A DNA stretch of 64,000 bases from positions 62,001-126,000 of the IMG/VR virus record IMGVR_UViG_3300030099_006646; one strand, written 5' to 3'. Below the pieces are notes generated by a model. The model saw only the letters and a program-made list of their open reading frames with translations. It searched no databases and had not been told where the DNA came from. This document shows positions 4,093 through 42,292 of this stretch, one piece after another. The stretch is from a virus. A program made the position numbers and the translations under genes. Each line of letters starts with the position of its first letter. Positions within the stretch are counted from its first letter, which is position 1.

Positions 4093-7000
4093 ATGAAGAT
4101 TGCACACATTTCTGACATTCACATTCGCAACTATCGCTATCACTATGAATACGAACAGGTCTTTGAGCAACTCTACGCAAAGCTAGAGGAACTAAAGCCT
4201 GATCTTATCGTAAACACAGGCGATACTGCTCATACTAAACTTAACCTTAGCCCGTCTTATTTTGATATGGCGGTTAGAATGTTTGAGAGGCTAGCTGACA
4301 TTGCCCCTTATCATATTATCTTGGGGAACCACGATCTAAACCTTCGTAATCTCTCCAAGATAGATGCCGTTTCCCCCCTTGTTGCGGCATTGGACCACCC
4401 TAACATTCACTTTCACAAATATTCTGCGGAAGTGGACATAGGCAATAACTTTTGTTTTCATGTCCTATCCATTGTAGACGAAGAAAATTGGACACTCCCA
4501 ACAGACATGGATAAAGTACATATCGCTCTTTTTCACGGCTCTGTTGCTGGTGTTCAAACTTCTACTGGCTGGACAATGACTCACGGTGACATTAACTTAG
4601 ATCGCCTTACAGAATACGATTATGCTCTTCTTGGCGATATTCACAAGCCTAATCAACCCTTAGATAAAGAAGGGCGTATTCGCTATGCTGGTTCTCTTGT
4701 GCAACAAAACTTTGGAGAATCAGAAGAAAAAGGATTTCTTCTTTGGGACATTAAAGATGCTGATACTTTTAAAGTAAAACACTACGCATTAGAAAACCCA
4801 AAGCCCTTTGTCACTATCAACCTTACAAAGAAAGGCAAGATACCAGCAAAAGCAAAGATCCCAGAAGGGTGCCGGTTACGTCTTGTAACAGAAGTTAATC
4901 TTCCTATGGACATAATCAAGCGAACGATTGAACTTGCGAAGACAAAGTATAAACCAGAGACAATCAATTTTCATTCTAAAGTTGTCGGCAACAGAAAAGG
5001 AGGAGACGACGCATCTAATACAGTCTTTAAAGACGATTTGCGAAGTGTAGAAGTTCAAGAAGGTCTTATACAAGATTATTTAAAAGACTATGAACTTGAA
5101 GAAGAAACACTGCAACAAATCTTCGCTTTAAACCAGAAGTATAATAAACTCGTTACAGAAGAAGAAGAGGTAAGTCGCAACGTTCACTGGTCTGTGAAGA
5201 GTCTTGAGTGGGACAATCTTTTTAACTATGGAGAAGCAAATACTATTGATTTCAATAATCTAGAAGGAACAGTAGGTATTTTTGGCAAGAATTTTTCTGG
5301 TAAATCTTCTATTGTTGATTCATTCCTTTATACTTTGTTCAACACAACCTCCAAGAATGAAAGGAAAAACCTCAACATTATTAACCAGAATAAAGAAAAC
5401 GGAAGAGGAAGCGTCAGTATTGATATTGGAACTGACACTTATCATGTTGAAAGAACAAGCGAGAAATACGAAAAGAAACTTAAAGGCAACATTACAACAG
5501 AAGCCAAGACAAATATTGAGTTCTACAAGGTAGATAACATTACAGGCGAAGAAACACCTCTTAATGGTGATACAAGAGCGCAAACAGACAAAAACATTCG
5601 TTCTGTCTTTGGTTCAATAGAAGACTTTCTTTTAACTTCTATGGGTTCTCAGTTAGAGTCTCTTGCTTACATTAACGAAGGCTCGACAAAGCGTAAAGAA
5701 ATTCTTGCTAAGTTTCTTGACTTGGAAGTCTTTGAGAAGAAGTTTAAAAAAGCAAAAGACGACGCTGCTGATTTGAGGGTTGCTCTCAAAAAGATGAAGG
5801 ATAGAGATTTTGTAACAGAACTTAAAGAAAAAAGAAAAGAACTTGCTTTAAGCGAAACAAAGATTGATATCAAAAAAAGAGAAAATGAAGACCTTAAAGA
5901 ACTTACATTAGGATTTAGAGAAAACATATTAGCTTTAGAAACAAAGATTAACTCTATACCAGATGAAATAATCGAAATCCAAGAAGTCTTAGAAGAAATA
6001 AAAGAAAAGAAAGAAGAACTTGACAGCATTTCAAACAAAGAAAAAGATTATATGGATGAAATTGCTGAAAAGCTTGAGTTTGTAAAGAAGTTTGAAAACT
6101 TCCAAAAAGTATTTGATATTGATGATGCTTTAAAAAACAAAGAGTTTGGCGAAGATATGATCTCAGAGCTTGATAGTTTTTCAAGAGATATTGAAGTTTT
6201 GGAAATAAAGTTCAACAATCAGTCCAAAAAAGCATCTCTTTTAAATGAAGTCCCTTGTGGTCCAAAATATTCCTCATGCAAGTTTATTAAAGACGCCTAT
6301 AACGCATCTTCTCAACTAGAGAATACCAAGGTGGCTTTAAATGAACTAAAGCTCTCAAAAGGGCAAAAACAAGCCGAATTAGATAACTTAGAACACGATA
6401 AGAATATTGAAAGAATCAACGGATATATAAAGGCAAAAGAGAAAAAGAACAAATATGAAAAACAAGTTAAAGATATTAGATTAGATATTGAACGGAACAA
6501 GATAAAATCCCTACAGATCAATAATGATCTTAATAACTTAATAGAAAAAAGAGAAGAATACGAAGAGAACAAGGATGCTATTGAAAACCTTCAATTTCTT
6601 GTAAAGGAAAAGAAGAAGCTGAAACATATCGTCTCAACAAATGAGATTGCAGTAGAAAAAGCATCAGAAGATCTTCTTGATCTTTACAAAGCAAATGGCT
6701 CTCTAGAACAACAATACAAACAAATTGAACTTGAGCAGAAAGAACATGATACTTTAAACAAGAGCTTTTCAACTTACGACTTGTATATGAAGTGTGTCCA
6801 TTCAAACGGCATTGCATATGACTTAATCAAGCAAAGCCTACCTATTCTTAACCAAGAAATACAAAAGATTTTATCTAATGTGGTTGAGTTTGAGGTTATG
6901 TTTGAGAATGACGACAACAAACTTGACATTTTGATCAAACACCCTAAGTATGAGGCACGACCCATTGAGATGGGCTCAGGCGCAGAGAAGACAATCGCAG

Positions 7001-7245
7001 CAATGGCTATTCGTTTAGCTCTTTTAAATGTTTCTACCTTGCCAAAAGGAGATGTATTTATCCTTGACGAACCAGGAACAGCCCTTGATGAAGAAAATAT
7101 GGAAGGATTTATTCGCATTTTGGATATAATTAAAAGCGAGTTTAAAACAATCTTTCTTATTTCACACTTAGAAGTCTTAAAAGATATTGTAGATAAGCAA
7201 ATAATCATTAACAAAGAAGATGGTTATGCTAAAGTAAACGAATAA
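4093..7245 (+). CDS. SbcD-SbcC (Mre11-Rad50 / gp47-gp46) fusion nuclease-ATPase
   Basis: 1050 residues joining two enzymes that are normally separate. Residues 1-230 are a metallophosphoesterase: HISDIHI, NTGDTAH, LGNHDLN, FHGS and LGDIHKP carry the metal ligands. A linker/capping region runs to about 365. An SbcC/Rad50 ATPase follows: Walker A GKNFSGKS near 398-405, long coiled coil (about 540-870), a ligand-type hinge PCGPKYSSC near 719 where Rad50 would have a CxxC hook, signature region MGSGAEKT, and Walker B VFILDEPG near 985. In T4, gp47 and gp46 (339 and 560 residues) form this complex for recombination-dependent replication and host DNA breakdown. The hook cysteines are six residues apart rather than two. 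Confidence 0.88.
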   Translation: MKIAHISDIHIRNYRYHYEYEQVFEQLYAKLEELKPDLIVNTGDTAHTKLNLSPSYFDMAVRMFERLADIAPYHIILGNHDLNLRNLSKIDAVSPLVAALDHPNIHFHKYSAEVDIGNNFCFHVLSIVDEENWTLPTDMDKVHIALFHGSVAGVQTSTGWTMTHGDINLDRLTEYDYALLGDIHKPNQPLDKEGRIRYAGSLVQQNFGESEEKGFLLWDIKDADTFKVKHYALENPKPFVTINLTKKGKIPAKAKIPEGCRLRLVTEVNLPMDIIKRTIELAKTKYKPETINFHSKVVGNRKGGDDASNTVFKDDLRSVEVQEGLIQDYLKDYELEEETLQQIFALNQKYNKLVTEEEEVSRNVHWSVKSLEWDNLFNYGEANTIDFNNLEGTVGIFGKNFSGKSSIVDSFLYTLFNTTSKNERKNLNIINQNKENGRGSVSIDIGTDTYHVERTSEKYEKKLKGNITTEAKTNIEFYKVDNITGEETPLNGDTRAQTDKNIRSVFGSIEDFLLTSMGSQLESLAYINEGSTKRKEILAKFLDLEVFEKKFKKAKDDAADLRVALKKMKDRDFVTELKEKRKELALSETKIDIKKRENEDLKELTLGFRENILALETKINSIPDEIIEIQEVLEEIKEKKEELDSISNKEKDYMDEIAEKLEFVKKFENFQKVFDIDDALKNKEFGEDMISELDSFSRDIEVLEIKFNNQSKKASLLNEVPCGPKYSSCKFIKDAYNASSQLENTKVALNELKLSKGQKQAELDNLEHDKNIERINGYIKAKEKKNKYEKQVKDIRLDIERNKIKSLQINNDLNNLIEKREEYEENKDAIENLQFLVKEKKKLKHIVSTNEIAVEKASEDLLDLYKANGSLEQQYKQIELEQKEHDTLNKSFSTYDLYMKCVHSNGIAYDLIKQSLPILNQEIQKILSNVVEFEVMFENDDNKLDILIKHPKYEARPIEMGSGAEKTIAAMAIRLALLNVSTLPKGDVFILDEPGTALDEENMEGFIRILDIIKSEFKTIFLISHLEVLKDIVDKQIIINKEDGYAKVNE

Positions 7246-16296: not shown

Positions 16297-19002
16297 ATGC
16301 CAGTCAGTTTTATTGGAGCAGGAAATTTTAAAGGAACTTGGGACGCTAATGCAAATAGCGGTTCCGCTGATTTTTTAAACACAGGAGAGCCTTTACTAGC
16401 CTCCTCGGCAAGTGCGACTGCCGGATACAATGTTGCTGTAACTCCAGCACAAACTGCCTCTGTAGGCGATTACTGGCAGGTTACAACTGCTGGATCTACA
16501 AACATTGATGGCGAGACTAACTGGCAACTTAACGATTGGTGTCTTTATGTAAGCTCTTCAGACAATGGACTTCACTGGCGAAGATTAAGTGTATCAGATA
16601 CTGTTGCATCTGTCACTATTGGAGAAGCTTCTTCAGAAGGACTAAAGACAGATCTTCTTGCAAGCGCTAGTGCTCAAAGCGGACCTAATAACGCTTATGG
16701 CAAAAATGGAGAGATTTTATTTTGCTCTTCTTCGGATGCCGCAGGTAACAACAAATATTTTGAAGGAAGCAACGCCCTTACTTGGAATTCTAATGGAAGC
16801 GTTCTCAATCTTACAGGAACTCTTAAAGTTTCTGGAACAATCGAAGCAACAACACTGCACACTGTCGAGGTAACCTCTAGTGTATTGTTCGAAGACGGTT
16901 CAACTCGCTTTGGAAATTCAACAGACGATAGTCACGAGTTTAGTGGTTCTGTTTATGTTTTAACTGGTTTAACCTCAAGCGCGGGTATTTCTGGCTCTTA
17001 TCTTATGGGCGATGGTTCCCGACTAACTGGAATTACTGCTGGCTCTACTCTTGGGAATCCTGGCTATGGAAACGCTGCTACTTCTAGAGTTCCTTTCTTT
17101 GGGGTAATCGACGGTGCCAGCAAGCTTGGATTAAGCGGCTCGGCAAATTTTAGCTTCTTTACTGCCTCTAACGATCTTCAGGTTACTGGAAATATCCGCG
17201 CTAGCAATCTTTATGTTGGAGACTTTATTTACCACGAAGGCGATACTGATACGTATGTCCGCTTTCAAAATGGTGGAATCACCACGGCTGCTGATGCTAC
17301 TGTAGGTTCTGTTTTGACGTCCACAGGACTCACGATAAACCCAGGAAATGCAACCGGGTTTGATTTCTTAGTAGAGACTGCGAACTTTACCCGAGGCTTA
17401 CATGTAGATGGTGGAAGCGACAATGTAGGTATACGAACTGCTCCCTCTGGTGTCATCGAGGCTTTAGTAGTATCAGGCTCTACCCTGTTTGGTTCTGCAA
17501 GCGCTAGCACACATAGATTTACAGGCTCTTTGGTTGTCAGCAATGGCATATACACAACCCAAGATATTATTCACTGGGACGATACCAACACAAAAATAAC
17601 TTTTACAGACGATCAGATTGACTTTACAGCAGGAGGCGTCACGCTTTTATCTCTCGATGAGACAACTCAAGATATTGTTATTGTTGGTGACGGCACAGAC
17701 GTAGACTTCCAGGTCAAAGGTTTGAATGATAATCATGCTATATTCCTTGAAGGATCATCAGATAAAGTTGGAATAGGATTTAGCTCCCCCGCAGAGAAAT
17801 TATCAGTATCAGGTTCTACTGTCTTCGGGCGACCAAATGGTGAAGCAGACAAGCACACTTTTTCAGGCTCTGTTTATGTTTCCGATGACATTCATGTTGC
17901 CGACAGGATTTCTCACTTAGATGATTCAAATACTTTCTTCAACTTTAATGCAGACACTATCAACGCTACTGTTGGAGGCATTAGAGCTTTTGAGAACTCC
18001 ACAAATACATTTGAGTTCAATCCCGATGGAGAAACCTTCACTGTAAGTGCCCAAGGATCTTCTATATCTAACACTTTCTATATAAATGGACCAGCAGATA
18101 ACGTTGGAATACGATGCGCTCCTCTCAATTTACCAGAAGCTTTAGCTGTTTCTGGCTCAACCTTGTTCGGATCAGCCAGCGCAAACAGTCACCAGTTTAC
18201 AGGCTCTGTATATGTAAGCAATAACATAGCTTTTGCAGGCAACCTTCAAAACGCCGCAGATGATGATACTTATATCGATTTCCTCACAGATAGAATGCGC
18301 TTCTTTGCAGGTAATATTCAGTTTGCTGATTTCCTTGAATCTGCCACGGGACAAGATGCAATAACTTTCAATGGTAATAGTAGCGACGTTGACCTGATTA
18401 TTAAATCCGACCCAGGTGGAGGAACTGCAACAACTGCACATTCACACACTGTGTTTGTTGAAGCTTCTTCTGCTAGAGTCGGTATAGCGGAATCCTCTCC
18501 TGGAGCCCAGCTTGATGTATCTGGCTCAACTATTATTGGACGAAACGACGGTGCTACTATCTCTAGCAATCAAATCAGAGGTACGCTGTATGTAACAGGA
18601 AATGTTGGAATTAATACGGCAGTTACGGGATATTCCTTAACTCTTCCAAACTCAGATGACTTTTTAGGTCGAGGCATGGCTTATGCTTGGTCTACTTATT
18701 CATCTGCCCGATACAAGCAGAATGTCACACCTTTATCTAATCCAATTGAAACAGCCAAAAAACTACAAGGTGTCGAATTTACGTGGAAAGAATCTGGGCA
18801 TAAAGATTTTGGATTTATTGCAGAGGAAGTTGGAAAGGTCTTACCACAGCTAGTCTCTTATGAACCAGGCGGAAAAAATGCCATTGGAATGGACTACTCT
18901 AAAATCACTTCTCTATTGGTTGAGTGCGTAAAGCAACAACAAGAACAAATAGAAACACAAGAAGACAGAATAAAACAACTAGAAAAAAAATTAAAATCTT
19001 AA
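16297..19002 (+). CDS. Tail fiber/spike with C-terminal S74 chaperone domain
   Basis: 901 residues of repeating beta structure ending in an intramolecular chaperone (peptidase S74) of about 110 residues. The catalytic Ser-Lys pair is in YSSARYKQNV (Ser then Lys five on), where self-cleavage would occur. GFIAEEVGKVLPQLV and the final coiled coil (VKQQQEQIETQEDRIKQLEKKL) are typical. The shaft carries repeats such as VSGSTLFGSASA...HRFTGSLVVSN about every 110-130 residues. Fibers of this sort trimerise and bind the host surface. GGGGAAGG ribosome site. Confidence 0.85.
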   Translation: MPVSFIGAGNFKGTWDANANSGSADFLNTGEPLLASSASATAGYNVAVTPAQTASVGDYWQVTTAGSTNIDGETNWQLNDWCLYVSSSDNGLHWRRLSVSDTVASVTIGEASSEGLKTDLLASASAQSGPNNAYGKNGEILFCSSSDAAGNNKYFEGSNALTWNSNGSVLNLTGTLKVSGTIEATTLHTVEVTSSVLFEDGSTRFGNSTDDSHEFSGSVYVLTGLTSSAGISGSYLMGDGSRLTGITAGSTLGNPGYGNAATSRVPFFGVIDGASKLGLSGSANFSFFTASNDLQVTGNIRASNLYVGDFIYHEGDTDTYVRFQNGGITTAADATVGSVLTSTGLTINPGNATGFDFLVETANFTRGLHVDGGSDNVGIRTAPSGVIEALVVSGSTLFGSASASTHRFTGSLVVSNGIYTTQDIIHWDDTNTKITFTDDQIDFTAGGVTLLSLDETTQDIVIVGDGTDVDFQVKGLNDNHAIFLEGSSDKVGIGFSSPAEKLSVSGSTVFGRPNGEADKHTFSGSVYVSDDIHVADRISHLDDSNTFFNFNADTINATVGGIRAFENSTNTFEFNPDGETFTVSAQGSSISNTFYINGPADNVGIRCAPLNLPEALAVSGSTLFGSASANSHQFTGSVYVSNNIAFAGNLQNAADDDTYIDFLTDRMRFFAGNIQFADFLESATGQDAITFNGNSSDVDLIIKSDPGGGTATTAHSHTVFVEASSARVGIAESSPGAQLDVSGSTIIGRNDGATISSNQIRGTLYVTGNVGINTAVTGYSLTLPNSDDFLGRGMAYAWSTYSSARYKQNVTPLSNPIETAKKLQGVEFTWKESGHKDFGFIAEEVGKVLPQLVSYEPGGKNAIGMDYSKITSLLVECVKQQQEQIETQEDRIKQLEKKLKS

Positions 19003-19155: not shown

Positions 19156-21729
19156 ATGGCTGCACCTTTTGATAATAATGCTGTTTCTATTTACGGACAG
19201 TATGCACAATTTGAGCTACTAGCAAGTGGCTCCTCCGCACCTGCTGCCTCCGGGTCCGCAGTGCGCGTCTTCGCTTCCGCGTCCAAACTTTACATGGTAC
19301 GTCCTGGTGAAGATCACAAAGAAATCGCTACCACCTCTGATGGTCTTGATTTCAACTTACAAGACGGCGACGGTATTGCTGATTTCACATTTGATGGATC
19401 TGCAAACGCTACTGTTTCTGTCGACATTCAGAACCTTTCCGCTACAACTACAGTAGCTGACGGCGACCTCGTTATGATTGACGACGGTGCTGGCGGAACA
19501 CTCCGCAAAATGACTCGTGCTCACTTTATCGAGTCTGCACCTCTCGATGCTATCGACATCGATGGCGGTGCTATTGATGGTGCTACCTTGGGTGCTAACG
19601 CTCAAGTAACCATTACTGACGCCGATATGAACGGTGGAACAATCGATGGCGTTGCTATCGGTGCTTCCTCTGCTGCTGCCGGTACATTCACCGATCTTTC
19701 ATCTAGTGGTAACACTGTCCTTGGTAACGCTGCTACAGATCACGTCATGTTCATTGCTGATGTAGCATCTGACTTCACTCCATTTAATGACAACCTTTAC
19801 GATCTTGGAAACGGTAGTGCTCGTTTTGCAGAAGGTCACATTGTTGCCCTTCACGCTGACCAACTCGGTCAGGCACTCGATGCAAACAGCCAAGCAATCA
19901 CAAATATTAACGTTGATTCCGGTGCTATTGATGGTGTAACAATCGGTACAAACTCCGCTGCAACTCAGGTTGTTGCTACACAATTTACCGCTTCTCACAT
20001 GAAAGTTGATAACGACCTTTTGGTTGTTGGTGACCTTCAGGTTCAGGGTAACATTGACAGCGTTTCTGTTACACAGAACTCTTTAGAAGTTTCTGACTTC
20101 CTCATTATTGCTGGTAACTCTGGCTCTGCTGCTAACATGGACGGCGGCGGTCTTCAGTTCGGTGGAACAAAGCTCGGTGGCTCCGCTGCTGCTGCTATTC
20201 TTTACGACCACAGCAATTCCGCTCTAGACTTTAACATTGGTTCTACCACAGAAATGCGTCTACAAGACGGTGTTCTTCGTCCAGAGACTGACAACGATGT
20301 AGACCTTGGTGCTTCTGGTGCTGAGTTTAAAGATCTCTACCTCGATGGTGTTGCTTACATCGACAGCCTCCAAGCTGACCAACTAGGCGCTGCTCTTGAC
20401 GCAAACAGCCAAGCTATCACAAACATTAATGTTGATTCTGGTGCTATTGATGGAGCCGTCATCGGTGCTAACTCCGCTGCTGCTGGTACATTTACAACTC
20501 TCGATTGCAACGACGGTGCTTTCGCAGTTGCTAACCTCGACATCGACGGAGCCACAGACATCGGCGATGCTCTTGTAGATGCTGACTTGATCATGGTTGA
20601 TGACGGTGCTGGTGGAACCAACCGCAAGTCTGCAATGTCTCGTGTCATGACTTACATTGAGTCTGGTCTTGATACTCTTGCAAACAACCTTAGCATGGGT
20701 GACAACAACATCACTAACGTCGGAGATATTAACTGCGACAGCGTTAGCGTAGATGATGCTGCTGTTGGTCTTGACATTCAGTTCGGTGGCAACACTGGCT
20801 TAAACAAAATGTCTTTGACAGACAACTTAGCTTCTGCTCTTTCTATCGCAGAAGCCGGTAACGAGTACATGAGATTTACTACAACTGATTCCCAAGAAGG
20901 AATTGGTTTTGGTAAAATGGCTGCTCCTTTGACTGACGATGCTGTCATGCTTGGTGCCCCAACTTACCGCTGGTCTCAAGGTCACATTAAGGTCCTTCAC
21001 GCTGACTCACTTGGACAGGCACTTGATGCAAATAGCCAAGCTATTACAAACATCAATGTTGACTCCGGTGCAATCGACGGAACAGTAATCGGTGCTAACA
21101 GCGCGGCTGCTGGTACTTTCACAAGCCTTGTTGCTGGTGGAGACGTTGACCTCGGTGATGCTTCAACTGATACTATCACAGCTACAGGTCGTTTTGACTC
21201 TGACTTAGTGCCTTCTTCTGATAGCGCCCGCGCTCTCGGATCTTCCGCACTTCAGTGGTCTACTGCTTATGTTGATGAAGTTGAATCCGCTACTGGTGGA
21301 TTAACACTTACAACTGCTGGTGGTATTTCTGTCGCTGGTACAGCAAATGCTGACGGCTACCTTTTACAGCTTCCAACAACTGGAGACGCTCGTGCTCGTG
21401 CTTGGGTTACTTACTCATCTGCTCGTCACAAGACTAATGTCCAAACAGTTAAGAATCCAATTGATACTGTGAAGTCTCTTCGTGGTGTTACTTACGATTG
21501 GAAAGGAACTGGACAGGCTGACGTCGGGTTTATCGCTGAAGAAGTTGGAGCAATCGTTCCTGAAGTTGTGTCTTTCGGTAAAGACGGACGCGCAGAAGGT
21601 ATTGACTACGGTCGTTTAACTTCTGTCCTCGTTGAAGCTATGAAGCAACAGCAGTCTGAGATTGAAAAGCTACAAAATGTAGTTTTAAATCTTACTTCTG
21701 AGCAACCTAGCCTCTTAGAAGACAAGTAG
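19156..21729 (+). CDS. Repeat-containing fiber with C-terminal S74 chaperone domain
   Basis: 857 residues. A shaft of Asp/Gly/Ala-rich repeats contains the unit LDANSQAITNINVDSGAIDG in three clear copies (DNA at 19858, 20377 and 21001) and partial copies near 19561 and 19636. The end is an S74 domain with YSSARHKTNV (Ser-Lys pair), GFIAEEVGAIVPEVV and a short coiled coil. Its last 110 residues are related to those of the preceding fiber gene. The codons look more C-ending and regular than in its neighbours, which suggests high expression. It has its own promoter-like element and a double terminator. Confidence 0.85.
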   Translation: MAAPFDNNAVSIYGQYAQFELLASGSSAPAASGSAVRVFASASKLYMVRPGEDHKEIATTSDGLDFNLQDGDGIADFTFDGSANATVSVDIQNLSATTTVADGDLVMIDDGAGGTLRKMTRAHFIESAPLDAIDIDGGAIDGATLGANAQVTITDADMNGGTIDGVAIGASSAAAGTFTDLSSSGNTVLGNAATDHVMFIADVASDFTPFNDNLYDLGNGSARFAEGHIVALHADQLGQALDANSQAITNINVDSGAIDGVTIGTNSAATQVVATQFTASHMKVDNDLLVVGDLQVQGNIDSVSVTQNSLEVSDFLIIAGNSGSAANMDGGGLQFGGTKLGGSAAAAILYDHSNSALDFNIGSTTEMRLQDGVLRPETDNDVDLGASGAEFKDLYLDGVAYIDSLQADQLGAALDANSQAITNINVDSGAIDGAVIGANSAAAGTFTTLDCNDGAFAVANLDIDGATDIGDALVDADLIMVDDGAGGTNRKSAMSRVMTYIESGLDTLANNLSMGDNNITNVGDINCDSVSVDDAAVGLDIQFGGNTGLNKMSLTDNLASALSIAEAGNEYMRFTTTDSQEGIGFGKMAAPLTDDAVMLGAPTYRWSQGHIKVLHADSLGQALDANSQAITNINVDSGAIDGTVIGANSAAAGTFTSLVAGGDVDLGDASTDTITATGRFDSDLVPSSDSARALGSSALQWSTAYVDEVESATGGLTLTTAGGISVAGTANADGYLLQLPTTGDARARAWVTYSSARHKTNVQTVKNPIDTVKSLRGVTYDWKGTGQADVGFIAEEVGAIVPEVVSFGKDGRAEGIDYGRLTSVLVEAMKQQQSEIEKLQNVVLNLTSEQPSLLEDK
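19849..21125 (+). repeat. Three long direct repeats in the fiber shaft
   Basis: Related segments of about 100-130 bases at 19849-19963, 20371-20496 and 20989-21125. Each codes for HADxLGQALDANSQAI and then TNINVDSGAIDG plus an IGxNSAA segment, with many synonymous differences. The amino-acid repeat is better kept than the DNA, which argues for selected shaft periodicity rather than recent duplication. Confidence 0.75.
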
Positions 21730-31743: not shown

Positions 31744-32337
31744 ATGGCAGCGAAAGGATTTTGGGGTGGACAAGGAGGAGCTATAGTTGATCCAAAAAGA
31801 TCATTTAGATGGCTCGTTTCTTTTGGAAACAACGTACAACAACAAAACGGTCAAAACGTAGTAGGATTGCAGGAATGGTATGCTAAATCCGCAAATAAGC
31901 CAAGCTTTGAAATTACGGAAACCCCACATAACTTTATTAATCATACCTTTTATTACCCTGGTCGTGTTCAATGGCAAACTATTGACATTACATTAGTTGA
32001 CCCTTCTTACCCAAATGATGCTTCTCAAGCTCTTGTTAAGGCTTTGCAAAACTCTGGTTATTACTTACCTACAGATGTTCGCTCTGCTTCTAATACAATC
32101 ATGAAGTCTAGTGCTGTCAGCGCTCTTGGTGGACAGGTTAAACTTAAGCAACTTGGACAAGATAACAGCGATATTTTAGAAACTTGGACCTTGATTAATC
32201 CTTGGATTAAGAATGTTACCTTCGGTGATTTAGCTTATGACACAGAAGACATGGTAGAAATTACTTTAACAGTTAGATATGATTATGCTACTATCGATGT
32301 TAAAGGAGACAAATCTCCTACTTCCAAACCACAATAG
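31744..32337 (+). CDS. Tail tube protein (gp19-like)
   Basis: 197 residues (T4 gp19 has 163). It follows the sheath gene. Typical tube stretches are SFEITETPHNFINHTFYYPGRVQWQTIDITLVDP and VKLKQLGQDNSDILETW...NPWIKNVTFGDLAYDTEDMVEITLTVRYDYA, here quoted by their key segments. It forms the rigid inner tube through which DNA passes. Confidence 0.92.
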   Translation: MAAKGFWGGQGGAIVDPKRSFRWLVSFGNNVQQQNGQNVVGLQEWYAKSANKPSFEITETPHNFINHTFYYPGRVQWQTIDITLVDPSYPNDASQALVKALQNSGYYLPTDVRSASNTIMKSSAVSALGGQVKLKQLGQDNSDILETWTLINPWIKNVTFGDLAYDTEDMVEITLTVRYDYATIDVKGDKSPTSKPQ

Positions 32338-32345
32338 AGGTATAA

Positions 32346-33233
32346 ATGTCTAGAAATAATTCTGATCGTCTCGGGTTGGACGATAATACAACCCCTGACG
32401 GCGGCGCAGACGCCCCTGTAGCTGCCGTTGAAGGAGGATCACAAGGGTTATCCTTCTCTATGCCTACGGAACACGTAGAGCTGCCTTCAGGGGGGCGATA
32501 CTACTCTGAAAACCATCCTTTATACAATCAAGAAACGATTGAAATTAAATACATGACTGCAAAGGAAGAAGACATTCTAACTTCTCCTTCTCTTGTCAAA
32601 AAAGGACTTACAGTTGAAAGGCTTTTAAGAAGCATTATCATCGATAAAACAATCGATCCACAACATCTTCTTATCGGAGATAGAAATGCTATTATTATTG
32701 CATCCAGAGTTACTGGGTATGGTCCTGAATACAAGGCTCAAACTGTATGCCCTGCTTGCATGGCTCAAGACAAGTGGGAGGTTGATCTTTCTAACTTGAA
32801 TATCAATCCAGGTGGCGTTGCTTCCGCTAATGGATATGAAGTTGCTGAAGGAAAAAACGATGGCGAGTATGATATTATTGTACCCAAGACAAAAGTAACA
32901 GTAACTGTTAAGCTCTTGACAGGTCGCGACGAACTTTCTATTGCTCAAAGAACAAAGAAAAGAAAAAAACACACACAAGAAGAAACAAGCTTGGTAACAC
33001 AAATGAAGTCTATGATTGTAGCCGTTAACGGAAGCCGCAAGGAATCAGATATTGAAAGACTTATTGAATTTTTACCTGCTTTAGATTCTCGCTACATTCG
33101 TAATGCTTATTCAAATATCAATCCAAACTTGGACATGAAATATCCTTTTGAATGTCAAAACTGTGGACATGAGGACACACTGGAGGTCCCGCTGACTGCG
33201 GAGTTTTTTTGGCCTAAGGGAAGAACAAGCTGA
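32346..33233 (+). CDS. gp26-like baseplate hub/tail assembly protein with zinc ribbon
   Basis: 295 residues. LPSGGRYYSENHPL (about 47-60), the motif IKYMTAKEEDILTSPSL, then LLIGDRNAIIIASRV are typical of T4-type gp26-like proteins. A split zinc ribbon is formed by CPAC near residue 134 and CQNC near 270. It ends just after the run of seven T at 33204-33210, where a shift of frame would fuse it to the following ORF without a start codon. In this place, ahead of the tape measure, it may act as a tail assembly chaperone. Confidence 0.75.
   Translation: MSRNNSDRLGLDDNTTPDGGADAPVAAVEGGSQGLSFSMPTEHVELPSGGRYYSENHPLYNQETIEIKYMTAKEEDILTSPSLVKKGLTVERLLRSIIIDKTIDPQHLLIGDRNAIIIASRVTGYGPEYKAQTVCPACMAQDKWEVDLSNLNINPGGVASANGYEVAEGKNDGEYDIIVPKTKVTVTVKLLTGRDELSIAQRTKKRKKHTQEETSLVTQMKSMIVAVNGSRKESDIERLIEFLPALDSRYIRNAYSNINPNLDMKYPFECQNCGHEDTLEVPLTAEFFWPKGRTS
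33204..33210 (+). promoter_or_regulatory. Candidate +1/-2 programmed frameshift site (TTTTTTT)
   Basis: In the gp26-like frame the site reads GAG TTT TTT TGG. Moving +1 (or -2) continues as GGC CTA AGG and opens a 62-residue ORF that has no start codon and is closed upstream by TGA at 33193. A -1 shift meets a TAA at once. Seven T in a row is a usual slippery sequence. Confidence 0.6.
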
Positions 33234-33399
33234 ACTGGTGTATGAAGAGATTTTTAATCTTAAATACCACGGAGGGTGGAGCTTTATCGAGGCATACAAC
33301 CTTCCTGTAGTTCTAAGAAAATGGTTCTTGGCTCGCCTTAACAAACAATTCCTCAAAGAAAAAGAAGATATTGAAAAGGCTAGAAAAAAGAATAGATAA
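33211..33399 (+). CDS. Frameshift extension ORF, gp51/GT-like tail chaperone part
   Basis: The + strand frame open from 33196 to TAA 33397-33399 has no ATG and only a poorly placed GTG at 33238. From the frameshift site it codes for GLREEQAELVYEEIFNLKYH, then GGWSFIEAYNLPVVLRKWFL and a Lys/Glu-rich helix: clearly protein-like. By +1 or -2 shifting it would extend the 288-residue gp26-like part to about 350 residues. The layout (upstream protein, shifted extension, then tape measure) mirrors the G/GT tail chaperones of many phages. Independent initiation at an unusual codon is the alternative. Confidence 0.65.
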   Translation, partial: GLREEQAELVYEEIFNLKYHGGWSFIEAYNLPVVLRKWFLARLNKQFLKEKEDIEKARKKNR

Positions 33400-33406
33400 A
33401 TCTATA

Positions 33407-33440
33407 AATGCTCTCTTGTTTTCAAGAGAGCATTATTTTT
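33407..33440 (+). terminator. Intrinsic terminator before the 33482 gene
   Basis: Perfect 12-bp stem AATGCTCTCTTG (33407-33418) / CAAGAGAGCATT (33423-33434), loop TTTT, then ATTTTTA. It would cut transcription after the tail chaperone pair. Confidence 0.85.
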
Positions 33441-33481: not shown

Positions 33482-33817
33482 ATGAAAGAAGAAAATGAAC
33501 TTGCAACACAAATCATTGATCTAGGAGCCAAGCGCAAAGGCGAGCTTAACGAAACAATCCTTGCAGCTTTTGGTGAATGGATAAAGACTATCATGAAATG
33601 GACATTTGGAGAAAATGTATTCTTTCCTTCCAAAGTAAGAGGAACTCAGTCTGAGGTTAATTCCTTTATGAGCGCTTTGAAAAATGAAAGAAGGTATATG
33701 AATGCATACAAGAATCATGGTCTTGGAGACAAGAGAACCTATGATAGCAAATACAAGCTAGACGCTGCCGTAAAGAAGTTTGAGCAAACAACAGGTTTAA
33801 AGTGGCCGTTTAAATAA
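33482..33817 (+). CDS. Small tail-operon protein, unknown
   Basis: 111 residues, basic C-terminal half. N-terminal helix with FGEWIKTIMKWTFGENVFFPSKVRGTQSEV-type pattern suggests a small folded helical protein. It lies just before the tape measure gene (11-base gap) and after a terminator, so a promoter should be in 33441-33481, where I see none of the two promoter types. No family recognised. Confidence 0.5.
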   Translation: MKEENELATQIIDLGAKRKGELNETILAAFGEWIKTIMKWTFGENVFFPSKVRGTQSEVNSFMSALKNERRYMNAYKNHGLGDKRTYDSKYKLDAAVKKFEQTTGLKWPFK

Positions 33818-33828
33818 GGAGAGTTTAA

Positions 33829-36282
33829 ATGGCTGAAGAAACAGATGTAGAAAGTGTGGTCCAGAGAGTCGCTGCTCTTCAAAAAGAAAAAGCTTTGCTG
33901 GATACCATTAGAGATGCTTATAACGATATAGCTGGCAAGAAGTCAGAAATAACAGAAGCACAGCGAAACGATTTAGACAAGCTTCAAGAAGAGTATGATG
34001 TTCAAAAGCAGCTTTTTGATGAATCAGCTAAACAGGTCAAACTCCTCACAGAAAAAGTAGATCTCGGAAAAGAACTCACAGAAGATGAGCAGGACCGCTT
34101 AAAAGCAGCGGAGAAGATTGCTGAAGGAGCCGCAAAAGAGCTTGGCACCAAAAAAGCTTTGCTTAAGATAGGTCAAAAACAAAACGACGCAATGGAAGAC
34201 TTGCAAGACGGCTTTTCTTCTCTTCTTCTTAGAGTGACTGGCGTTGGTGATGCCTGGAAAAGAGGTATTATTGGACAATTCCTAAAAGCTAAGAAAGAAG
34301 GCTTATCTCTAGGAGATATGTTCAAAAAACTGGGCGAAACATTCAAAAAGCAGTTCACCATTGGAAATATAGTTGGTTCTTTAGCTGCTAGTATGGCTCA
34401 AATAACAGCCCAGGCTATTTTCTCTATCGATCAAGCTCAAGCAGATTTTGTTAAGACTGTCGGAACTTCAATGACGTCAGAAGACAAAAAAGTTGTCGCG
34501 GAGATCTCAGAAGAACAACACAAGTTTGGGATGACCATTGAAGAAAACACTGCTAATCTTGGCAAGTTAAGAAGTCAAATCTCTGGTTTTAGAAACCTTA
34601 CTATGGAAACTCAAGCGGAAGTTTTGAAAGCGACAAATCAATTTGAAGCTCTTGGCATTGCAACAGAAAACTCAGCACAGTTTATTGATTTTGCTACAAA
34701 AGCAATGGGGAAATCCGCTACAGGTGCTATTGACATGCAAAAGCAGCTTTTTGGTCTTTCTCAGATAGTGTCTGCTTCTGGCGACCAGCTTATGCAACAA
34801 ATGCAACAAATGGGCGGCGATTTAGCACAGTTTGGAGACAACATGGGTCAAGAGTTTACAAACTTGGCTTTATTGGCAGACAAGACAGGTGTCTCGATGG
34901 ACAAACTGGTCGGCATCGCTAAAAAGTTTGACACTTTCCGAGGCGCAGCTTCAGCAGTTGGTCGTTTGAACACTCTTCTTGGTCGAAATCTTATTGACAT
35001 GAAAAAGATTGTAGGATTAGATTTTGCAGATAAAATTAAATATCTCTCCGAACAGCTTAATAAATCTGGTCAAAGTTTTGAGACAATGGGTCGCCACAGA
35101 AAACAAGCTTTTGCAGCAGCCTTAGAAACAGATGTCGCTACAATGATGCAGGTTGTAACAGGAGCAGCAGATGCACAGGAAAAGAAGTTTGAAGAACTTG
35201 GCGTAACTAACGAAGAAATGGCAGAAGCTGCAAAATCAGCAACACCTATCATGAGAATGCTCAAGGCATCTTTGCAAAAGCTTCTTGTGGCTGCTCAACC
35301 AATTATAGAAATGTTCAGGAGCATTGTCGAAGCTTTTGCTTCTATGTCTCCTGAGACAAAGAAAATGATTGGATATGTTATAGGGGTTATTGCAGCCCTT
35401 AAAGGACTTACAATGCTCGGCGGGCTTCTTGCTCCTTTGTTTACTCTAATGAAAGCAGGCTTTGCAGCTTTGTCCGTTTCCGCACCTGCCGCTGGTGCAG
35501 GTATTGCTACAATGATTAAAACGGTAGGAACTGCGGCTGTAGCTGCCGGTAAAGGCATTCTTGTTTTCGGAGGTTTTGCCCTTGCCCTCGGAGGCGTAGC
35601 TGCCGCAGTATTTCTTTTAGGAAAAGCTTTTGCCGAGCTTATAACCATAGATATGGGAGATTTTGTTTCCGTAATTGGAGCACTTGTTACTTCTATGCTT
35701 GGTTTTGCCGTAGCGGGAGTTTCGGCTTTGATCGGCTTGGCGGCATTTTCTATTGGGCTGGGTCTTTTGGGTATCGCGCTACTTACTGTCAAGACCGAAG
35801 ATCTTAGAGCGATGGCTGATCTGTTCATGGCAGTTGCAAAAATGCCAAATCCACCCTGGCAGTCCTGGACAGAAGGTCTTGATAAATTCTCTGATGCAGT
35901 AGAAAATAATATCGGAAAGATTTTACCAGGATTAACTTCTTTAATGCTGGCTATGGGCTTGATTGATATCTTAGGTAAAGGCGAAGGCATGGAAGCCACT
36001 GTCAAACTAGTGACTGCGATGGGAGAAATAGATGAATCTTCAGTAGAAGGCTTGGAGGCAACAACTACACTTGTAAAAGAGCTAAGACTCGCAGCAGAGG
36101 CAGATACGGCGGAAGCAATGGAAAAGCTTCTTAAAGCGGTAGACACAGCATTTAAGAAAAAACAGGAAATGGCACCCATTATTGTAAAAATTGGAGAGTA
36201 CGAGTTATTTAAACTCATGGACAAGAAAGCAAGCAAGTCAATAAACCCAGGTATGTCTGGTTACTTTCAATCATTAAAATAG
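33829..36282 (+). CDS. Tape measure protein
   Basis: 817 residues. Long N-terminal coiled coil (about 1-110), a helical Ala/Gln-rich middle (QLMQQMQQMGGDLAQFG), and a cluster of very hydrophobic segments at about 505-640 (VIGVIAALKGLTMLGGLLAPL, GLAAFSIGLGLLGIALL) as in tape measure proteins, which can pass into the host membrane. The position after the tail chaperone pair supports it. T4's gp29 is 590 residues; tail length should scale with this protein, so a somewhat longer tail is expected. Confidence 0.85.
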   Translation: MAEETDVESVVQRVAALQKEKALLDTIRDAYNDIAGKKSEITEAQRNDLDKLQEEYDVQKQLFDESAKQVKLLTEKVDLGKELTEDEQDRLKAAEKIAEGAAKELGTKKALLKIGQKQNDAMEDLQDGFSSLLLRVTGVGDAWKRGIIGQFLKAKKEGLSLGDMFKKLGETFKKQFTIGNIVGSLAASMAQITAQAIFSIDQAQADFVKTVGTSMTSEDKKVVAEISEEQHKFGMTIEENTANLGKLRSQISGFRNLTMETQAEVLKATNQFEALGIATENSAQFIDFATKAMGKSATGAIDMQKQLFGLSQIVSASGDQLMQQMQQMGGDLAQFGDNMGQEFTNLALLADKTGVSMDKLVGIAKKFDTFRGAASAVGRLNTLLGRNLIDMKKIVGLDFADKIKYLSEQLNKSGQSFETMGRHRKQAFAAALETDVATMMQVVTGAADAQEKKFEELGVTNEEMAEAAKSATPIMRMLKASLQKLLVAAQPIIEMFRSIVEAFASMSPETKKMIGYVIGVIAALKGLTMLGGLLAPLFTLMKAGFAALSVSAPAAGAGIATMIKTVGTAAVAAGKGILVFGGFALALGGVAAAVFLLGKAFAELITIDMGDFVSVIGALVTSMLGFAVAGVSALIGLAAFSIGLGLLGIALLTVKTEDLRAMADLFMAVAKMPNPPWQSWTEGLDKFSDAVENNIGKILPGLTSLMLAMGLIDILGKGEGMEATVKLVTAMGEIDESSVEGLEATTTLVKELRLAAEADTAEAMEKLLKAVDTAFKKKQEMAPIIVKIGEYELFKLMDKKASKSINPGMSGYFQSLK

Positions 36283-37570: not shown

Positions 37571-40500
37571 ATGTCACTTAAAGATCCCTCAAAATTTTTC
37601 AGCAACGACAAAGAGTTCAGAGACTGGACTTTTTTTAGTGTTCGCGGAACTGGCGGCAAAACAAACGGAGTCACTATAGGACCAGAAGGTAAAGTGGGCG
37701 CTTGTACTGGGATAACTTTCGAACAAATGAAAAAAATGTATGATGCATTTGGCGATATTGATTTGACAAAATGCATTTCATGGTCTTATAAGCTTCTCTG
37801 GGAAGCCGTGGAAAGACAAGTGAAACAATTTCCCAACTCTCCCATGTCAAAGGCGGGAAACAGCGGCTATATTTCATACTGGAACAAAATGGAGTGGTGG
37901 GATGGAATGGCGCACTTTGAACCCACCGAACGCGAGTGGAATCAAGAAGAGATCATCGATGAAATATTTGGGGTAAATGGCATGGGAGCTGCTAATGAAC
38001 TAACTGGTCGATTGAGCGTAGTGAGCGACGGCGGCAGTCAAATAAAGATACCCGGCTTATATGGTAATCTAAACTCTGGCGAGCAAAAACTTGTACGAAT
38101 AATGGAAAGTCTGGGCGGCGGGGAGACTTACCCTTCAGCAATGGCGAAACTCACAAGCGACCATCCCGGCTTGGCAAAGATGGTTCGCAACGACAAGATG
38201 GGAACGCTTGCCACCTACGGACTGTGGACCCGTAAAGCAGAGAATTTCCCATACAGAACATTTGTTTTTACTCCAATTCGCCGTCATAATGATGAAGCTT
38301 TCGGAGGTAGACCTTCTTTTGATAGACCTAAATGTCCTAAATGGCTTGATGCCTGGTGTCTAAAATATGTAGAAAAGGATTACTATTTTTGGTGGCATAG
38401 CTCACCAGTCGCAGGCGAACAGCATGGCTGGAGAGGTGCTCCATACAGAAAAGAAGCAAAAGGGGAAATTAAAGATTGGACACCTCGTAGTTATTCTCAA
38501 AGAAAAAGGAACATGGACCCTCTTGTTCAGCAGACTTTTGAATTTCACAGAGGCTGGGAGACACTTGATAACCTGACGGGGCATGGCAAAACTGGGGTTA
38601 AGGACACTTTTGCAACCAAGACGGATAAGTATAAAACTCATTATTCTGCTTACAATCCTTTTACGGACGATAATGGAGCCCCTTATTCGTCGAAAGAAGC
38701 ATGGAATCTCGCAAACGAGACAACAGGTGGGAATCCAAAATTTGAACAATGGGCAGGTGGCACTTGGAATGGCGGTGATTCCAACATTCTCTTATGGTAC
38801 GAAAATAAGATTACTAACGGCGAAAGCATGCTTAATATTGCCGAGTTTACAAGGGGTGCGGACGACCTTAAAGCAGCTTGGTATCCTGGCGGTTATCAAA
38901 AACATGATATTGAAACCATAATTCACACATTAAGGCATGGTCCAGGATTCGCCGGAGGCAGTCTGGAAAATAAAACTAAGCTTAAGCAATGGGTCGATGA
39001 TATTTTTGCAAGACAACTTGGCATGGGAAGAAACCCAAGTGATTTTGGCACCCGCGATGGTGAAATACCTGTTGAGAACGAAAAAATTAACATACTCCAG
39101 AAAGGCAAATCTTACCAAAATCTTCGATGGTATCTTTTAGATCCTGTCTACAAAGTTCAAGTTAATAGACCTTGGATGATGTGGTCAATGAGATTGGTTC
39201 TGTATATCATTGATTGCGTTAATAACGGAGTCTTTAAAAATCTACCAAAAGATGCAAAGCCGTTTTCAAAAGACTCAAAGTGGGGAAAATATTTCCTTAA
39301 GTTTCTTATTAATATTATTTGGCAAATGTTCGAGAAGTTCGCCAAGATTAAGAAAGCAGTTGATAATGCTCAAAAAGAGAATGATAAAGTAGATGCCAAA
39401 TCATCTGGAGTAGCTAAAAGCAAAAATGTTGCCAAACAAATAAGAAAAAACATGCAATGTTTCATGTTGAACTTGATTGATGAGTTTGAAAACTATCACC
39501 ATTCTTTTGGCTCTAAAGATATAAAAAATTATGAATTTCTAAGGATAACAGGTCCAAACACAAATATTTTTAATCTGATAGGCTACAAACCTAGAACTAT
39601 CAATAGGATGCTGAATATCCAGCCACATCAATTGGCGATGATGCAACCTAGAATCAAACTTTATAAAGAAAGAAAAACTAGAAAAGCTAACTCGAAAATG
39701 TTTGAAACTTATACAGTAGAAGTTGAAGGTCCATTTAGCACCCACACAAACACATCTACATTACAAACCATGCTCCAAGCGGGAGGTGGTCGTTCTATGG
39801 GGGCTGGTATTAAAGAAATTGTCTACAAAGCACACAGTGGAGATAAAGACTTTGATACCCCGCATACAACTGAAGTAGAAATTACTTTTATATTCAATAC
39901 ATTACAGGAGATATTTTTAAACTTTCCTTCTTTCGATCCGAAAGGAAAGGTGTCTTTTCCTTATGGAGTTGACCCTAAATATGCCTCGCTGGCTGGCTCT
40001 AATGACAAAGAAAAATTAAAAAGAATACCTGCTTCTTACGCAGAACTAGTATTTCCTATTAATACTAAAAATACTGATTTTCTTCAAGTTATATCCATGT
40101 CAGAAGAATCTGCCAATGTTATTCTTGAGGTTGGATGGACAACCCCCGAAGATATCAAAAAACTTAACGAACAAGATTCAAAGTTTTTTAAAAACTTAAA
40201 TGAACAATCTTTATTTAAATCTTATGTTTTGAATCCTTATGATTCTGAGTTTAATTTCACAAATGAAGGTCAAGTAGAGTTAATAGCAAGATATTACGGC
40301 ATAGAAAGGTCTTTAGAGGTAAATCCAAAAAATAAACTTTTTCCTGCCGCTGGTCAAGCTCAAATAGCAGGCAAAGAATCTTTAGATCAAAACCAGACAC
40401 TAAAGACCAACGTGGAAAAACTTCGCAAGTTAGAGCAACTGCAAAACTCTGGTAAAGTATTGACCAGAAGACAAACCTCAGATCTTGCCAATTTTAAAGA

Positions 40501-42292
40501 AATTATAAAAAGGGAAGTTTTGTATGCTAAAGCAAATCAGTATGATGATTACGTGCGTCATCAACTTTCTGACTTTCTATCATCAATTTTTGACGAGGAC
40601 AGAAATATTTATACTTGCGCCGTTCCCAAGGCATTTCTCGGAGCCCGCTCCGATGGAAATGTTTTAAAATGGTCTCCAACAAGAGATATTAATATGCTTA
40701 GAGACTCGCCCAGGACTGTTCAAAGAGGCGTCGGCTCGAAAGCAACAACTTTGAGCAAAGTCAAAGGAGGTATTAGCAAAGGAGTCAAAGAAAACAACGC
40801 AAATGTAGACGAAGAACAACTTAAACTTAAGATTGGTCAACTGAGGATAAAGTTAACACTTGAAAAAAAGACCGAAGAGGAAATAAAAAAAGAAATTCAA
40901 AAGTTAAGAGATGAGTTTGAAAAGTCTAAAAAAGTATCGAAAATGAGCAGTACAATCAAAAAGAACGCCACTGAAGCTTTGAAAAGCCACGGCGCAGGCT
41001 TTGATACTTCAAAAGATGTTTGGCCAATTCATTTTGTTTATTTTGGAGATCTTGTACAGGCAGTGTTTAGAGAGTCTTTTAAATCATATAAGTTTTTTGC
41101 TGGAAACATCGGTGTTGAGGACGATCTGGGACCCACTGAAAAACTCAACTATATCTTAGGAACTGTTCTTGTTCCTATCGTCAAAGGAGAAAATCAAGTT
41201 CTCTATTCTATAAACATTGCTGATATTCCATTGACTTTATCTCATTTTTCAAATTATATTGTAGAAAAGCTAGTCTCCCCACAGGCGTATAAAATGACTA
41301 GATACAACTTTATTCAAGGTCTTTTAAAAAGCATCTTAAGAGATTATTTCAACTCAGATTGTTTTGTAGGGCAAGTAGATATACAAAGAACTACTCCTCA
41401 AACTGTATTGTTCAGTATGCCTTCTTTTAGTAAAAAAGATAAAAAGGGAGATGGTACTGGAGGAATATGGAAACTGTCTGGTTTCAAGGGTAAGAAACGC
41501 GACCTTGGCAGGTCATATACAAAAAATACCTTCAAAGCTAGAATGCAACAGTTTGAAACAAATATCAAGGCTAACTCTAAAGATATAAGCAAGAGACCGC
41601 ATTATAAATATGTCTTTTTAGGATCTAGAGGTCTAACTAGACAATCTTACGACAGAAAATCTGATCTTCAAGATAACATACATCATTTTTATTTTGGAGC
41701 AGGAAAAGGATTGGTTAAAAATGTATCTTTCAAATCAGAAGAATTGCCACATCAAACCGAAGCTCTGCTTTTAGAAGGAATTTCAGCAGTGAATCCACAA
41801 GCAACGGCTTTTATCCCTCGATTGTTTAACTGTTCTTTAACAATGATAGGAAACTCGCTGTTCGATCCAGGTCATACTTTTTTTGTTGATCCCACAATGG
41901 GAACCATGATTGGTCAAACTGGCAGGAAAAAAGACAATGCAGGTATAAATGTTATTAAGGATACAGGACTCGGCGGCTATTTTTATGTTGCTTCTGTAGA
42001 AACCAGAATTGGACCAGGAGTATATGAGACTGTCCTTGAGGGCATCAAGACAGGTGTTGCCAAGAAAGGGGACAATAAACGACCGTTCTATCCAGCTCCA
42101 ACAGAAGAGATAAAAGACAAAGGGGTGCCGTATACTTCTCCTGAAAATGCTAGGGACAAAAAGCTAGGCGCAGGAAAAGGTAAAAAACCAAAACCTACGC
42201 CAGAACAAGCAGCAGCAGCAGCAGCTCAACAAGCTATGGAAGGGATATCAGGCATCGGAAAAGCGACGTCAGCCTGGACAGAACTCTTTTAG
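37571..42292 (+). CDS. Giant baseplate-region virion protein, unknown
   Basis: 1573 residues, the largest in the window. The first 600 residues are rich in Trp, Gly and Tyr and look globular. Later parts are mixed alpha/beta with a coiled coil (KLKIGQLRIKLTLEKKTEEE, about 1075-1120). The C-terminal region has ETVLEGIKTGVA and a low-complexity end with a poly-Ala run from a GCA repeat near 42211. It lies between gp53-like and another unknown, where T4-type phages keep baseplate wedge proteins. No catalytic motif was recognised. Confidence 0.6.
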   Translation: MSLKDPSKFFSNDKEFRDWTFFSVRGTGGKTNGVTIGPEGKVGACTGITFEQMKKMYDAFGDIDLTKCISWSYKLLWEAVERQVKQFPNSPMSKAGNSGYISYWNKMEWWDGMAHFEPTEREWNQEEIIDEIFGVNGMGAANELTGRLSVVSDGGSQIKIPGLYGNLNSGEQKLVRIMESLGGGETYPSAMAKLTSDHPGLAKMVRNDKMGTLATYGLWTRKAENFPYRTFVFTPIRRHNDEAFGGRPSFDRPKCPKWLDAWCLKYVEKDYYFWWHSSPVAGEQHGWRGAPYRKEAKGEIKDWTPRSYSQRKRNMDPLVQQTFEFHRGWETLDNLTGHGKTGVKDTFATKTDKYKTHYSAYNPFTDDNGAPYSSKEAWNLANETTGGNPKFEQWAGGTWNGGDSNILLWYENKITNGESMLNIAEFTRGADDLKAAWYPGGYQKHDIETIIHTLRHGPGFAGGSLENKTKLKQWVDDIFARQLGMGRNPSDFGTRDGEIPVENEKINILQKGKSYQNLRWYLLDPVYKVQVNRPWMMWSMRLVLYIIDCVNNGVFKNLPKDAKPFSKDSKWGKYFLKFLINIIWQMFEKFAKIKKAVDNAQKENDKVDAKSSGVAKSKNVAKQIRKNMQCFMLNLIDEFENYHHSFGSKDIKNYEFLRITGPNTNIFNLIGYKPRTINRMLNIQPHQLAMMQPRIKLYKERKTRKANSKMFETYTVEVEGPFSTHTNTSTLQTMLQAGGGRSMGAGIKEIVYKAHSGDKDFDTPHTTEVEITFIFNTLQEIFLNFPSFDPKGKVSFPYGVDPKYASLAGSNDKEKLKRIPASYAELVFPINTKNTDFLQVISMSEESANVILEVGWTTPEDIKKLNEQDSKFFKNLNEQSLFKSYVLNPYDSEFNFTNEGQVELIARYYGIERSLEVNPKNKLFPAAGQAQIAGKESLDQNQTLKTNVEKLRKLEQLQNSGKVLTRRQTSDLANFKEIIKREVLYAKANQYDDYVRHQLSDFLSSIFDEDRNIYTCAVPKAFLGARSDGNVLKWSPTRDINMLRDSPRTVQRGVGSKATTLSKVKGGISKGVKENNANVDEEQLKLKIGQLRIKLTLEKKTEEEIKKEIQKLRDEFEKSKKVSKMSSTIKKNATEALKSHGAGFDTSKDVWPIHFVYFGDLVQAVFRESFKSYKFFAGNIGVEDDLGPTEKLNYILGTVLVPIVKGENQVLYSINIADIPLTLSHFSNYIVEKLVSPQAYKMTRYNFIQGLLKSILRDYFNSDCFVGQVDIQRTTPQTVLFSMPSFSKKDKKGDGTGGIWKLSGFKGKKRDLGRSYTKNTFKARMQQFETNIKANSKDISKRPHYKYVFLGSRGLTRQSYDRKSDLQDNIHHFYFGAGKGLVKNVSFKSEELPHQTEALLLEGISAVNPQATAFIPRLFNCSLTMIGNSLFDPGHTFFVDPTMGTMIGQTGRKKDNAGINVIKDTGLGGYFYVASVETRIGPGVYETVLEGIKTGVAKKGDNKRPFYPAPTEEIKDKGVPYTSPENARDKKLGAGKGKKPKPTPEQAAAAAAQQAMEGISGIGKATSAWTELF

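What the first reader, a model, noticed from the sequence alone, without database searches (positions are those of the whole stretch)
33196..33399. Candidate +1/-2 programmed frameshift ahead of the tape measure gene
Seven T at 33204-33210 lie near the gp26-like stop. A +1 or -2 shift opens a 62-residue ORF without a start codon whose sequence is strongly protein-like. A -1 shift meets TAA. The arrangement parallels the G/GT tail assembly chaperones, where frameshifting is known, but in a gp26/gp51-like setting.
Basis: partly seen in the sequence, partly recalled or inferred. Interest (0 to 1): 0.85.

Follow-up and report, generated by a model that had tools for sequence, protein, structure and literature searches.

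The report
+1 frameshift makes phage tail chaperone
In this T4-like virus and about a hundred relatives, ribosomes appear to skip one base at a conserved run of Ts, so that one gene yields a short and a long tail-building chaperone; T4 itself makes the two versions from separate genes.

Summary
Confirmed. Seven Ts (33204-33210) end a gp26-like gene (PF12322) just upstream of the tape measure gene. The +1 frame then encodes a 62-residue helical domain, giving a 350-residue fusion. In 98 distinct relatives the site reads TTY-YTT-T(GG)-CC and the same domain follows in the same frame. Codon two is TTT (90) or CTT (8), never TTC, although 20% of this family's Phe codons are TTC; CTT needs at least five changes on a gene tree. 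Codon one can be TTC (11 sites), breaking the T run. This fits +1 P-site slippage UUU/CUU to UUU (as at prfB) and argues against -2 and transcriptional slippage. Two features were not in the finding: a hairpin just upstream (41% of sites, 11% in synonymous shuffles), and no T before TTT-TTT (0 of 79, about 36 expected), as if the -1 heptamer were avoided. One clade lost the slippery codon and gained a separate ATG. The best solved match of the gp26-like model is HK97's tail assembly chaperone (weak, E 0.14). So this is a T4-like tail assembly chaperone made by +1 frameshifting; T4 uses two genes, gp26 and gp51. Frameshifting chaperones are known; this signal and its direction here look new. 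Nothing was tested at the bench.

The parts
32346..33233 (+). Short form (TAC-N): gp26-like protein, 295 aa, PF12322 T4_baseplate / phrog_150
   Evidence: AlphaFold2 model pLDDT 88.5, best solved match HK97 tail assembly chaperone 2OB9; only PF12322 gene in the 158.6-kb record
33189..33201 (+). Upstream RNA hairpin CCGC-UGACU-GCGG, 2 nt before the slippery site
   Evidence: -7.0 kcal/mol against -1.8 in synonymous shuffles, 0 of 100 as low; family-wide excess
33204..33210 (+). Slippery site UUU_UUU_U(GG): inferred P-site codon 33207-33209 re-pairs at 33208-33210 (+1)
   Evidence: 98 relatives: codon 2 TTT 90 / CTT 8 / TTC 0, next base always T; tree
33211..33399 (+). Long-form extension (TAC-C domain) in the +1 frame, 62 aa plus stop; fusion with codons 1-288 gives 350 aa
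   Evidence: translations; homologous domain in all frameshifting relatives; three-helix model pLDDT 91.9; DUF6760 and gp51-family similarity
33407..33434 (+). Intrinsic-terminator-like hairpin with T-rich tail between the chaperone gene and the genes that follow
   Evidence: one found against 1.6 expected in shuffles, so weak
33829..36282 (+). Tape measure protein, 817 aa
   Evidence: phrog_167, E 1.2e-12
31744..32337 (+). Tail tube protein (gp19-like), just upstream of the chaperone gene
   Evidence: phrog_4542, E 8e-24

Best explanation
32346-33399 is one tail assembly chaperone (TAC) gene of a T4-like contractile-tailed phage. Most ribosomes stop at 33231 and make the 295-aa short form. 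With UUU (33207-33209) in the P site and UGG waiting in the A site, some ribosomes slip forward one base, tRNA-Phe re-pairing from UUU to UUU; they then read GGC CUA AGG and make a 350-aa long form with a three-helix C-terminal domain. A hairpin that re-forms behind the ribosome next to the E site probably stimulates the +1 move and blocks -1. By analogy with lambda gpG/gpGT, the short form coats the tape measure protein and the few long forms recruit tail tube protein. Shown by comparison: conserved site, frame, domain and hairpin excess, and absence of a second long-form gene in the record. Inferred: that the shift happens, its efficiency, the hairpin's role, and the chaperone function.
For: Site and frame kept in 98 distinct relatives. 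Codon-position conservation switches register at the site. Codon 2 never TTC (naive P 1e-9); CTT is the only Leu codon seen there and needs at least 5 changes on the tree. No in-frame ATG/GTG/TTG up to residue 12 of the domain in 35 of 81 relatives, nor up to residue 30 in 19. A single PF12322 gene and a single copy of the small domain in the record, and single PF12322 genes in 7 of 8 relatives' records. Clade L121/L125 loses the slippery site where the domain has its own ATG. Upstream hairpin excess over synonymous null, little or none in control windows; such hairpins stimulate +1 shifting on 70S ribosomes (PMC6321510). 0 of 79 TTT-TTT sites preceded by T, 36.5 expected. HK97 TAC is the best solved structural match. 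Fusion profile collinear with gp51, P 1e-4.
Against: No protein or reporter data. The HK97 match is weak by E-value (0.14), and the small domain alone gives no significant hit to solved structures or to a gp51 profile. The hairpin is clear in only about half of the sites, and synonymous T-depletion occurs at some nearby control codons too. In Huang et al. the hairpin effect was seen at a stop codon without RF2, not at a UGG sense codon. Phylogenetic non-independence makes the naive P values too small.
Confidence: 0.9

Rival explanations
1. -2 ribosomal frameshift at the T run, as in phage Mu, giving one extra residue.
For: Same destination frame; -2 is used by Mu tail genes (PMC5009743); T7 would allow re-pairing at the 79 sites that keep TTT-TTT.
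Against: Eleven sites (at least 4 changes on the tree) read TTC-TTT-TGG, where -2 would put tRNA-Phe on UCU with a mid-codon mismatch; +1 fits every site. Listeria phage LIS04 (TTT TTT AGT) is the one relative where -2, or +1 one codon earlier, fits better.
Confidence: 0.05
2. Transcriptional slippage: RNA polymerase drops one U in the T run, perhaps helped by the hairpin.
For: Hairpin plus T run resembles an intrinsic terminator; from my own knowledge, stem-loop-aided slippage that removes one base is known in a Roseiflexus IS element.
Against: 19 of 98 sites interrupt the run (TTTCTTT, TTCTTTT) and keep the frame; constraint is by codon phase, with third base of codon 2 invariant while third base of codon 1 and first base of codon 2 vary.
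Confidence: 0.03
3. The small domain is a separate protein with its own start (GTG 33238 or a non-standard codon), coupled to the upstream stop.
For: GTG at 33238; a separate ATG-started gene exists in L121 and L125, and separate small ORFs are annotated in some phages.
Against: No start of any usual kind at a conserved place in relatives; the first conserved residues (GL..EY) lie directly after the slip site; the slippery codon is conserved except where an ATG exists.
Confidence: 0.02
4. Assembly or sequencing error in a homopolymer splits one ordinary gene.
For: Homopolymer runs are error-prone (general knowledge).
Against: About 98 distinct sites in independent contigs, cultured phages included, with non-homopolymer variants, keep both the stop and the shifted frame.
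Confidence: 0.005

Closest known systems
T4 gp26 / gp51 tail assembly chaperones (Vladimirov, Gautam and Davidson 2022, Virology 566:9-15; known here from its title and from papers that cite it, text not available)
   Same: Short form is in the same Pfam family (PF12322); long form is collinear with gp51
   Different: T4 has two separate genes (26 and 51); here one gene and a frameshift
Lambda gpG/gpGT and other G/GT chaperones (-1 frameshift)
   Same: Short and long form from one gene by a shift near the 3' end, next to the tape measure gene; C-terminal add-on domain
   Different: +1 instead of -1; different slippery site; T4-type N-terminal protein with CxxC zinc-ribbon-like motifs
-1 frameshifting TACs of Vandenendeviridae and Andersonviridae (GTTTTT motif, PMC12846349)
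   Same: Poly-T site at the end of a myovirus TAC-N gene, downstream frame open in all members
   Different: -1 there, +1 here; base before TTT-TTT is never T here
prfB (release factor 2) +1 site CUU_UGA
   Same: P-site CUU or UUU followed by U, re-pairing on UUU; upstream duplex next to the E site
   Different: A-site is a Trp codon, not a stop; RNA hairpin instead of a Shine-Dalgarno duplex
HSTV-2 haloarchaeal myovirus tail genes (PMC5009743: very likely +1)
   Same: +1 shift in a myovirus tail chaperone gene
   Different: Unrelated archaeal virus; site and homology not compared here

Membership tests
Tail assembly chaperone (G/GT type) | Gene lies between tail tube and tape measure genes | tested here: met
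   gp19-like tube 31744-32337 and tape measure 33829-36282
Tail assembly chaperone (G/GT type) | Fold related to a known tail assembly chaperone | tested here: inconclusive
   2OB9 is the top solved match, probability 0.85, but E 0.14 and TM 0.47 to target
Tail assembly chaperone (G/GT type) | Two products sharing an N-terminus by a programmed frameshift near the 3' end | tested here: inconclusive
   Comparative signature strong; products not observed
Tail assembly chaperone (G/GT type) | Both forms bind tape measure protein and are absent from virions | not testable with these tools
   Needs proteomics or pull-down
T4 gp26 family (PF12322) | Match above Pfam gathering score | tested here: met
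   53.1 bits against 24.5; 52 of 55 relatives match at E 0.1
T4 gp26/gp51 two-gene arrangement | Separate gene for the long form | tested here: not met
   [quoted passage not shown] the record may be incomplete
prfB-like +1 slippage | P-site NUU followed by U with tRNA able to re-pair on UUU | tested here: met
   98 of 98 sites
prfB-like +1 slippage | Shine-Dalgarno duplex a few nt upstream | tested here: not met
   No enrichment over gp26 controls; a hairpin is found instead

The most novel reading that the evidence does not exclude
A previously undescribed class of bacterial-ribosome +1 signal: UUU/CUU_U-GG in a sense context, driven by a small RNA hairpin next to the E site rather than by a Shine-Dalgarno duplex or stop codon, with selection against the overlapping -1 heptamer, used across a large group of T4-like phages (Bacteroidota-linked and others). 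Other T4-like lineages appear to use -1 shifts or separate genes for the same pair, so the direction of frameshifting has switched during evolution.
Probability: 0.5. Interest if true: 0.75.

Novelty: new variant of a known kind. Interest (0 to 1): 0.64.

Why it matters
T4 is the standing exception to the rule that long-tailed phages make their tail chaperone pair by frameshifting (PMC5009743). Relatives of T4's own gp26 that frameshift suggest the exception may be derived, and they supply the intermediates: +1 sites, -1 sites, and a clade that swapped the slip site for a start codon. The signal is short, needs no stop codon and has a testable hairpin, so it may serve as a bench model for +1 recoding. 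Standard annotation misses the domain or calls it a separate hypothetical gene.

Tried and rejected
Shine-Dalgarno stimulator: no enrichment. Downstream RNA structure: z about -1.3 against pooled synonymous shuffles, but this null was not locus-specific and regions further downstream gave about -0.55, so not claimed. Scan of genome contigs with the small domain alone: nothing; with the fusion alignment: eight MAG contigs, those with a named group all Bacteroidota. Solved-structure sequence search with the fusion profile: no hit. Small-domain fold against PDB: no hit. Direct T4 gp51 comparisons with a single sequence: uninformative; a nine-member gp51 profile gave a collinear alignment with the fusion but not a significant one with the small domain alone. 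Scans with SP-15, RAS14 and Atu_ph07 gp26 found only self or nothing. Terminator reading of hairpin plus T run: the scan did not flag it and it does not explain codon-phase constraint. I could not read Vladimirov et al. 2022; PMC12846349 cites it for poly-T -1 signals in T4-like TAC-N genes, so it may already describe some frameshifting T4-like members.

Full report
What is there. The window is part of a 158.6-kb virus record. Its genes mark a T4-like phage: terminase, portal, major head protein, sheath, tube and tape measure all match phage families, several of them T4-type. The gp26-like gene 32346-33233 (PF12322, E 4e-14; phrog_150, E 5e-18) sits between tube and tape measure genes. It ends TTT TTT TGG CCT AAG GGA AGA ACA AGC TGA. 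From the base after the T run, the +1 frame reads GLREEQAELVYEEIFNLKYHGGWSFIEAYNLPVVLRKWFLARLNKQFLKEKEDIEKARKKNR, then TAA. The fused product would be 350 aa.

Relatives. A scan of viral contigs gave 80 relatives, and named phages and MAG contigs gave more. After removing duplicates, 98 distinct sites share the junction: TTTTTTTGGCCT 71, TTCTTTTGGCCT 11, TTTCTTTGGCCT 8, TTTTTTTACCCT 3, TTTTTTTGGCCA 3, and two others. In the first set the short frame stops 3 to 8 codons after the two slip codons and, where the contig is long enough, a domain of about 60-97 residues follows in the +1 frame. Conservation by codon position changes register at the site: second positions of frame 0 upstream, second positions of frame +1 downstream.

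Direction of the shift. For +1 slippage in the P site, codon 2 must let its tRNA re-pair on the overlapping UUU. Codon 2 is TTT (90) or CTT (8), and the next base is always T. TTC never occurs there, although 20% of Phe codons in these genes are TTC (naive P 1e-9). All eight Leu cases are CTT, though CTT is only 22% of Leu codons. CTT needs at least five changes on the gp26 tree, and TTC at codon 1 at least four, so these are repeated experiments of nature. TTC at codon 1 would ruin -2 re-pairing but does not matter for +1. Both variants break the T run, which argues against polymerase slippage. Codon 1 would be the E-site codon; weak E-site pairing favours +1 shifting (PMC6321510), which fits the excess of TTT there.

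Avoidance of -1. T TTT TTT would be a -1 slippery heptamer. At the 79 TTT-TTT sites the base before is never T, with 36.5 expected from codon usage; at TTC-TTT sites, where T is harmless, it is T in 4 of 11. Some control codons nearby are also short of T, so part of this may reflect the G+C-rich hairpin, but none is empty. In 68 of 98 sites the -1 frame stops after one codon. Two distant relatives that carry the domain in the -1 frame do have T before the run: Atu_ph07 CAT TTT TTC and RAS14 AGT TTT TTT.

Upstream hairpin. The 36-42 nt before the site fold better than synonymous shuffles made with each locus's own codons (mean z about -1.5), while windows further upstream stay between 0 and about -0.3. 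A strong stem whose 3' arm ends 1-6 nt before the site occurs in 41% of loci against 11% in shuffles; six control windows show little or no excess. In this window it is CCGC-UGACU-GCGG at 33189-33201, -7.0 against -1.8 kcal/mol. Huang et al. 2018 showed on 70S ribosomes that a hairpin next to the E site stimulates +1 and attenuates -1 shifting (PMC6321510), though at a stop codon without RF2.

A natural control. In L121 and L125 (one clade, support 100/99) the site reads TTC-TTG-TAT or TTC-CTT-TGG-CCA, the +1 frame closes within about 11 codons, and the domain has its own ATG 29 nt downstream in another frame. Their sister rows still carry TTT-CTT-TGG. How that clade makes a long form is unknown.

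What it does. AlphaFold2 models are confident for the short form (pLDDT 88.5) and the domain (91.9). The short form's best solved match is the HK97 tail assembly chaperone, 2OB9 (probability 0.85, E 0.14), and many viral models annotated as baseplate hub or hub assembly protein match. The fusion profile aligns end to end with a gp51 profile (P 1.3e-4), the domain falling on gp51's C-terminus; six domain members hit the gp51 PHROG weakly. [quoted passage not shown] The chaperone role is by homology and position only.

Prior knowledge. Atkins et al. 2016 state that this frameshift is widely conserved in long-tailed phages except T4, that -1, -2 and +1 are all used in different phages, and that HSTV-2 is very likely +1 (PMC5009743). 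Vladimirov et al. 2022 assign the T4-like chaperone genes and, by title, propose a mechanism other than frameshifting. Phage Adele's family and the Andersonviridae are reported to use -1 at GTTTTT (PMC12846349). I found no paper that describes this +1 site; the library lacks most subscription journals.

Noticed in passing
window 4093-7245: A 1050-aa ORF matches the SbcD-like nuclease family in its first third and the SbcC-like family in the rest, as if T4 gp47 and gp46 were fused.
   Followed up: no
L121 and L125, 3' end of the gp26-like gene: A clade where the slip site has decayed and the C-terminal domain starts at its own ATG with a new N-terminal extension.
   Followed up: partly
L088 (Atu_ph07), L089 (RAS14), L091 (LR756511): Distant relatives carry the domain-like sequence in the -1 frame, at T_TTT_TTC or T_TTT_TTT in the first two.
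   Followed up: partly
L083 4001-4747: Huge-phage relative with TTT-CTA-TTC-CCT: domain in +1 frame but no obvious slippery codon.
   Followed up: no
window 33482-33817: A 111-aa ORF of unknown function lies between the chaperone and tape measure genes; no convincing family match.
   Followed up: no
window 16297-19002 and 19156-21729: Two adjacent large tail-fibre-like genes whose C-terminal regions match the same families.
   Followed up: no
window 37571-42292: A 1573-aa ORF in the baseplate region without any PHROG match.
   Followed up: no
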